DNA of 26,178 nt from a virus: positions 1 to 26,178 of IMG/VR virus record IMGVR_UViG_3300043773_000488; one strand, 5' to 3'. The first letter of the stretch is position 1; each line of letters opens with the position of its first letter. This document shows positions 13,643 to 13,931 of this stretch, piece after piece. The translations under genes and the position numbers were made by a program. The notes under the pieces were generated by a model that saw nothing but the letters and a program-made list of their open reading frames with translations, was not told where the DNA came from and did no database searches.

Positions 13643-13931
13643 TGGACAGCTTGCCATCTTCGAAGCTGTCCAAAAATTAGCAAAAATCGGCTGTGTTCCA
13701 ATATTGGTGTGCTTTACAGAGGATTGGACAGCCTTGACGAAAAAAAATGCTGTATATATATATATATGTGTGTGTGTGTGTGTGTGCATGTGTGTGTGTA
13801 TAATATTATAGTAATAATAGAAAAGTAAGATGTCCAAGCTGTCCAATGCTCCGAAAGGCTTGTAAAATTAGGGTGTTGAAGGGGACAGCTTTGTTTAATT
13901 TGAAGCTGTCCAAAGCTGTCCAAGCTGTCCA
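13643..13931 (-). repeat. Repeat-dense noncoding region with eight GGACAGC/GCTGTCC copies, candidate origin
   Basis: The 7-mer GGACAGC or its complement occurs at 13644, 13665, 13726, 13838, 13883, 13905, 13915 and 13924. The last three are direct copies 9-10 bases apart, about one helical turn. Two perfect inverted repeats are present: TGGACAGCTT at 13643-13652 with AAGCTGTCCA at 13663-13672, and GGACAGCTT at 13883-13891 with its complement at 13903-13911. The array begins two bases after the primase-helicase stop and encloses a TA/TG microsatellite. Iteron-like sites plus an easily melted tract next to a primase-helicase are what a replication origin would look like. A regulatory or terminator role is also possible. 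No credible gene lies here. Confidence 0.7.
13753..13798. repeat. (TA)7-(TG)10-CA-(TG)5 microsatellite
   Basis: On the plus strand seven TA units (13753-13766) run directly into ten TG units (13767-13786), then CA and five more TG units. An A tract precedes it at 13740-13747. Alternating purine-pyrimidine DNA of this kind melts easily or can adopt Z form, and replication slippage makes its length variable. Frames through it encode only His/Thr/Ile/Tyr runs and are not genes. Confidence 0.9.

What the first reader, a model, noticed from the sequence alone, without database searches (positions are those of the whole stretch)
13643..13931. Eight GGACAGC/GCTGTCC sites with two inverted repeats directly behind the primase-helicase
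The 7-mer occurs eight times in under 300 bases, including three direct copies at 9-10-base spacing and two perfect hairpin arms of 9-10 bases, with an A tract and TA/TG tract in the middle. In the rest of the window I noticed only isolated copies (near 9165, 9802 and 22264). Iterons plus a melting region next to a replication initiator is a known origin layout. It may be the replication origin of this phage type or a site for a DNA-binding regulator.
Basis: partly seen in the sequence, partly recalled or inferred. Interest (0 to 1): 0.72.

Follow-up and report, generated by a model that had tools for sequence, protein, structure and literature searches.

The report
Phage origin with switchable initiator code
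The repeats behind this phage's primase-helicase gene are almost certainly its replication origin; about 80 related phages have the same layout but spell the repeat differently, and the spelling is predicted by two or three amino acids at the tip of the primase-helicase, so how a replication starter reads its origin can be tested directly.

Summary
In detail: eight GGACAGC copies in 287 bp, with no comparable 7-mer cluster elsewhere in the record or in shuffles. The origin reading is supported and can be sharpened. In 81 distinct loci with a 60-100% identical primase-helicase, the region behind the stop codon keeps one layout: words at about 10-bp spacing, then an alternating purine-pyrimidine (TA)n(CA)n tract, then inverted words. 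The word itself differs: GGACA, GGACC, GGACT, TTGCA, TTGCC, TATCA, CATCA, CACCA or TAGGG. It changed at least 30 times on the primase tree. Word bases track residues 691 and 696, and more weakly 698, all in the wing of a predicted C-terminal winged helix. Of 707 columns, 691 and 696 predict the word far better than any other, even across distant relatives. One pair has identical DNA over more than 2 kb upstream and differs only in four wing residues and the words. The best reading is that the primase-helicase binds the words through its wing and melts the tract, as the initiators of PICIs/SaPIs and phage P4 do. New here are the residue-level recognition code and the frequent swapping of wing plus origin. 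Binding and origin activity are inferred, not shown.

The parts
13933..16056 (-). Primase-helicase (707 aa): BT4734-like N domain, PriCT-2, VapE-like helicase; proposed initiator that binds the words
   Evidence: Pfam, PHROGs DNA primase/helicase; SaPI5 PriRep1 (7pds) is the only PDB sequence match and the top fold match
13936..14166 (-). C-terminal winged-helix domain (about residues 631-707), proposed origin-binding domain
   Evidence: AlphaFold2 models (full length; residues 600-707, mean pLDDT 83): strand 651-654, helix 655-664, helix 673-682, wing strands 687-692 and 695-704; fold matches RFX5, RFX1, ASFV PrimPol C-terminus, phage P4 origin-binding domain
13945..13998 (-). Wing hairpin (residues 687-704) holding the specificity residues 691 (codon 13984-13986), 696 (13969-13971) and 698 (13963-13965)
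   Evidence: Residue/word covariation
13924..13930 (-). Word 1, direct copy right behind the stop codon
13915..13921 (-). Word 2, direct copy, 9 bp on
13905..13911 (-). Word 3, direct copy, 10 bp on
13883..13889 (+). Word 4, inverted
13838..13844 (-). Word 5
13829..13835 (-). Degenerate word (GGACATC)
   Evidence: counted as a GGACA core
13751..13802 (.). 52-bp strictly alternating purine-pyrimidine tract, (TA)n(CA)n with ATGC in the middle; proposed melting element
   Evidence: Present in all 81 loci at 19-53 bp, between the two word sets
13726..13732 (+). Far-side word 1, inverted
13665..13671 (-). Far-side word 2
13644..13650 (+). Far-side word 3, inverted; end of the origin

Best explanation
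The region 13643-13931 is the replication origin of this phage. The primase-helicase encoded next to it is the initiator. Its C-terminal winged-helix domain binds the repeated words; two groups of words lie on either side of an easily melted alternating tract, so two helicase assemblies could load and open the DNA. Word specificity sits mainly in the wing: residue 691 goes with the first word base, 696 with the third and, less firmly, 698 with the fifth. Wing and origin are inherited and exchanged as one short cassette, which has given many phages of this family different, mutually foreign origins. Shown here by computation: the conserved layout, the repeated word switching, the residue-word covariation and its position in the predicted wing. 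Inferred: direct binding, melting, origin activity, loading as two hexamers.
For: Layout: 77 of 77 loci with enough sequence have at least two words on each side of the tract, at regular ~10-bp spacings. The top word is ~98 times denser in the 400 bp behind the gene than in the rest of the loci. Words within one origin agree: 616 own-class cores against 71 for all other classes pooled. Switching: at least 30 word changes on a tree of primase residues 1-640; the nearest relative by that part predicts the word only 58% of the time. Covariation: a rule on residues 691, 696 and 698 fits 81 of 81 loci at word bases 1, 3 and 5 (the rule was read off the same data). Independent pairs: K696 with base 3 = A/C, 15 of 15 (p 6e-5); R/K691 with base 1 = T, 12 of 13, none opposed (p 5e-4). 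With relatives over 75% identical excluded, residue 691 predicts base 1 at 0.96 and residue 696 predicts base 3 at 0.90; the next columns reach about 0.6 and the baseline is 0.25-0.27. K696 has the largest excess of change of all columns: 21/30 in switch pairs, 0/33 in same-word pairs. Near-minimal pairs: L171/L172 have identical DNA from 2.4 kb to about 120 bp upstream of the stop, then differ by K690R, R691S, N694S, L696K and the words; L006/L007 differ in the C-terminal part by R691T, S694N, I696K, with flanks mostly 88-98% identical. Structure: 691, 696 and 698 lie on the two wing strands of a winged helix. Precedent: SaPI Rep and SCC Cch2 bind iterons directly downstream of their own genes through the C-terminal domain (PMC7581432); PICI origins have two iteron sets flanking an AT-rich region 3' of the initiator gene (PMC6092414).
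Against: No binding, replication or read-coverage data. GC skew of the window shows no turning point at 13.9 kb, though all genes run one way and the record is partial. Synonymous differences near the wing are also raised in switch pairs (0.43 against 0.19 at residues 690-706), so part of the association of neighbouring residues comes from block exchange. The base-5/residue-698 link is weak: 4 pairs agree, none oppose, p 0.125, and it fails the strictest cross-validation. The full-length model is poor (mean pLDDT 59).
Confidence: 0.86

Rival explanations
1. Operator or copy-control array: the primase-helicase, or a fragment of it, binds the words to regulate its own operon or the next gene, while replication starts elsewhere.
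For: Words lie close to the start codon of the next gene in many relatives; covariation shows who binds, not what for.
Against: The array lies 3' of the gene, is symmetrical about a long conserved low-stability tract, and promoter-like sites are at chance level (2 against 1.8 in shuffles). The closest solved relative is a satellite initiator.
Confidence: 0.07
2. Linkage only: wing codons and words sit within a few hundred bases and travel together by recombination, so they correlate without any contact between them.
For: The words begin right behind the wing codons; synonymous sites near the wing are also raised in switch pairs; spacers between words differ too in some pairs, e.g. L171/L172.
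Against: Only 691 and 696 predict the word across distant relatives; linked neighbours such as 692, 694, 695 and 697 do not. The same residue goes with the same base in separate backgrounds: K696 in GGAC and CACC origins, R698 in GGACC and TTGCC origins. Within the CATCA/CACCA group the wings of L060 and L030 differ at one residue, L696K, as base 3 goes from T to C.
Confidence: 0.04
3. Transcription terminators, RNA hairpins or methylation sites made from repeats.
For: Two perfect hairpin arms in the window; a DNA methylase gene lies next to the region.
Against: The only terminator-like hit near by is at 13468-13484, outside the region. Direct copies cannot form hairpins with each other. The methylase is not inside the exchanged segment.
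Confidence: 0.03

Closest known systems
PICI/SaPI replication origins with Rep or Pri-Rep initiators (SaPI5 PriRep1, SaPIbov1 Rep); related SCCmec Cch2
   Same: Origin directly 3' of the primase-helicase/initiator gene; two iteron sets flanking a proposed melting region; VapE/D5-type helicase; C-terminal DNA-binding domain; word differs between elements (PMC6092414; PMC7581432; 7pds)
   Different: Here in tailed phages with their own terminase and tape measure, not satellites. The melting region is a conserved (TA)n(CA)n tract. The word is tied to single wing residues and has switched at least 30 times inside one close family.
Phage P4 alpha protein and its origin repeats
   Same: One protein with primase, helicase and C-terminal winged-helix origin-binding domain that binds repeats (cited in PMC4234260); fold match 1ka8, Z 5.5
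   Different: P4 alpha has a Toprim primase (PMC4234260); this one has BT4734-like N plus PriCT-2. The fold match is middling.
V. cholerae PLE RepA/ori and the ICP1 origin-directed nuclease Odn
   Same: DNA-binding domain and origin covary and are swapped as a module; nuclease attack on origins selects for new words (PMC8263062)
   Different: Different initiator (RepA_N domain), ~30-bp semi-palindromic iterons, few alleles; no residue-level code was reported in the passages read.
Geminivirus Rep iterons and the iteron-related domain
   Same: Amino-acid variation in a virus initiator correlates with iteron sequence (PMC10653810)
   Different: Rolling-circle ssDNA plant viruses, unrelated protein and origin; N-terminal domain.
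RFX winged helix
   Same: Best fold match of the C-terminal domain (8zjr Z 7.6; 1dp7 Z 6.3); RFX1 reads DNA with its wing in the major groove rather than with the recognition helix (PMC4333399)
   Different: Eukaryotic transcription factor; a shared fold at this Z is not proof of kinship or of the same DNA contact.

Membership tests
PICI-type replication origin | Lies immediately 3' of the initiator (rep/pri-rep) gene | tested here: met
   First word within 2-6 bp of the stop codon in most of 81 loci
[quoted passage not shown]
   77 of 77 loci; the tract is alternating TA/CA rather than simply AT-rich
PICI-type replication origin | Initiator is a self-loading helicase with C-terminal origin-binding domain | tested here: inconclusive
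   VapE domain, PriRep1 similarity, predicted winged helix with word-linked residues; activity not tested
PICI-type replication origin | Gene plus origin drives replication | not testable with these tools
   Needs a plasmid maintenance test
PICI/SaPI satellite element | Satellite that relies on a helper phage for particles | tested here: not met
   The window carries its own large terminase and tape measure genes; complete-looking relatives are ~35-38 kb contigs
Phage P4 alpha/ori | Toprim-type primase domain | tested here: not met
   Pfam finds BT4734-like N and PriCT-2 instead
Phage P4 alpha/ori | C-terminal winged-helix origin-binding domain | tested here: inconclusive
   1ka8 among fold matches at Z 5.5, rmsd 2.8 over 69 residues; binding not tested
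RFX-like wing recognition | Wing, not recognition helix, carries base specificity | tested here: inconclusive
   Word-linked residues lie in the wing while helix 673-682 hardly varies between word classes; no complex structure

The most novel reading that the evidence does not exclude
A simple, predictive recognition code: residues 691, 696 and 698 of the initiator wing each set one base of the origin word. Wing plus origin then form a specificity cassette that phages exchange to make their origins foreign to co-infecting relatives, satellites or origin-attacking nucleases, much like incompatibility types.
Probability: 0.4. Interest if true: 0.9.

Novelty: new variant of a known kind. Interest (0 to 1): 0.78.

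Why it matters
Initiators and origins must change together, and how they do so without losing function is an open question. This family offers dozens of natural switches with near-minimal differences, a small set of candidate residues, and predictions for which residue reads which base. It also extends the PICI type of origin to tailed phages and gives a marker for finding origins in unannotated phage contigs. If specificity can be moved by two or three residues, the system would be a compact model for evolution of DNA recognition and for compatibility between co-infecting replicons.

Tried and rejected
Chance cluster: rejected. A fixed family-wide GGACAGC motif: rejected; 42 of 81 loci use another third base and most of those lack GGACA altogether. 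First automatic word classes by 5-mer miscalled several TGCATC/TGCACC origins as TTGCA; corrected, one tie (L066, truncated downstream) set by hand to CATCA from its top word TGATGCA. Another phage protein as binder: not excluded in general, but in L171/L172 the fetched 2.4 kb upstream is identical apart from the wing. Terminator and promoter scans: nothing above chance in the region. GC skew: uninformative. Full-length AlphaFold model: too weak for the catalytic part; the C-terminal domain was modelled alone. Host: the genome-contig scan gave only a Peregrinibacteria MAG contig and a 38% relative in Chitinophaga, so the host is unsettled. The paper on the SaPI5 PriRep1 structure is not held. 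No paper on this phage family's origin appeared in the searches made, which cover open-licence papers only.

Full report
Observation. The eight copies, their spacing, the inverted arms and the tract are as described, with small corrections. No unrelated 7-mer clusters more than 4 times in 300 bp in the record, and shuffled windows gave 3 or 4 at most. The record is a 26-kb virus fragment with a large terminase, a tape measure protein and a primase-helicase.

Relatives. A scan with the primase-helicase gave 80 loci; further scans with other members added a few. After removal of duplicates, 81 loci of this family with downstream sequence were compared. Directly behind the stop codon all show the same plan: two or three direct words ~10 bp apart, one inverted word, a ~43-bp spacer, one or two more words, an alternating purine-pyrimidine tract of 19-53 bp (mean 43; CATGCAC-type centre in 74 of 81), then two to six words, mostly inverted. 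Every locus long enough to tell (77) has words on both sides. The top word is ~98 times denser there than in the remaining DNA.

The word changes. Nine five-base cores occur: GGACA 31, TTGCA 19, CATCA 11, TTGCC 7, CACCA 5, TATCA 4, GGACC 2, GGACT 1, TAGGG 1. On a tree of primase residues 1-640 the word changes at least 30 times, and the closest relative predicts the word in only 58% of cases. All copies within one origin change together: 616 cores of the own class against 71 of all other classes pooled.

The word follows the wing. An unguided ranking of alignment columns put residues 691 and 696 first. At 696: K with base 3 = A or C (39 of 39), I/V/T/E with G, L with T. At 691: R or K with base 1 = T, G with C, small or hydrophobic residues with G. 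At 698: R (once L) with base 5 = C, M/T with A, A with T, K with G; the last two, and L, are single cases. The three-part rule fits 81 of 81 after one hand-set tie, but it was read off the same loci. Two independent checks: phylogenetically independent pairs (15 of 15 for 696; 12 of 13 for 691 with none opposed; 4 against 0 for 698, not significant), and prediction with all relatives over 75% identity removed (0.96 for 691/base 1, 0.90 for 696/base 3, other columns near 0.6 or less, apart from 691 and 696 predicting each other's bases; 698 no better than baseline).

Near-minimal pairs. L171 and L172 share identical DNA from 2.4 kb to about 120 bp before the stop, and their proteins differ only by K690R, R691S, N694S and L696K; the words change from TATCA to GGACA. 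L006 and L007 differ in the C-terminal part by R691T, S694N, I696K, with TTGCA against GGACA, and both flanks are mostly 88-98% identical. Raised synonymous difference near the wing in switch pairs shows that wing and origin are often exchanged as a block, so linkage explains part of the signal at neighbouring residues but not why 691 and 696 alone carry across distant backgrounds.

Structure. The C-terminal 108 residues model as a winged helix (pLDDT 83). Residue 691 lies on the first wing strand, 696 and 698 on the second. The presumed recognition helix (673-682) hardly varies with the word. Best fold matches are RFX5 and RFX1, with ASFV PrimPol and the phage P4 origin-binding domain also listed. 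These Z-scores are middling and show a common fold at most. RFX1 is known to use its wing in the major groove (PMC4333399), which would suit the pattern here.

Mechanism. By analogy with SaPI Rep, SCC Cch2 (PMC7581432) and PICI origins (PMC6092414), the protein would bind the two word groups with its C-terminal domains, melt the tract between, load its helicase parts on the exposed strands and prime. Everything after 'word and wing are matched' is inference.

Why switch? The PLE-ICP1 case shows that origin-directed nucleases select for new iterons and module swaps (PMC8263062). Similar pressure from co-infecting relatives, satellites or nucleases is plausible here and untested.

Wider family. 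The Flavobacterium isolate mymlan6-1 (33% identical) has AGGTAAC eight times at 17418-17677 and related words right behind its primase, with a nuclease gene between. A Chitinophaga locus (38%) has CCTAACC seven times behind its gene. Nonlabens P12024S shows a weak cluster, and Cellulophaga phi46:1 has no room behind the gene and none there. L274-L280 (39% to L091) show GTAGTCA words behind the gene without the CA tract.

Verdict. An origin of known general type, in phages, with an unusually clear and frequently rewritten initiator-origin match.

Noticed in passing
L271 (Flavobacterium phage mymlan6-1) 16780-17687: A nuclease gene (gp41) sits between the primase and most of the word cluster, as if inserted into the origin; words flank it on both sides.
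   Followed up: partly
window 21990-22556 (-): 188-aa protein with a PHROGs 'kinase' match (E 4e-8) and an HELRQPLTS motif like a histidine-kinase H box, apparently without an ATPase domain.
   Followed up: no
window 16053-16454 (-): Nuclease-like gene (PHROGs Holliday junction resolvase/endonuclease) directly upstream of the primase; in mymlan6-1 and phi46:1 a VRR-NUC gene lies downstream of the primase instead.
   Followed up: no
L267: A close family member (60%) lies in a contig binned as Candidatus Peregrinibacteria; it may be a misbinned phage contig.
   Followed up: no
L268 6311-6560: Chitinophaga sp. sic0106 locus with seven CCTAACC copies behind a 38% identical primase-helicase; a possible prophage and host lead.
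   Followed up: partly
window 13751-13802: 52-bp alternating purine-pyrimidine run, conserved in kind across the family although the words change; such DNA can form Z-DNA and melts easily.
   Followed up: partly
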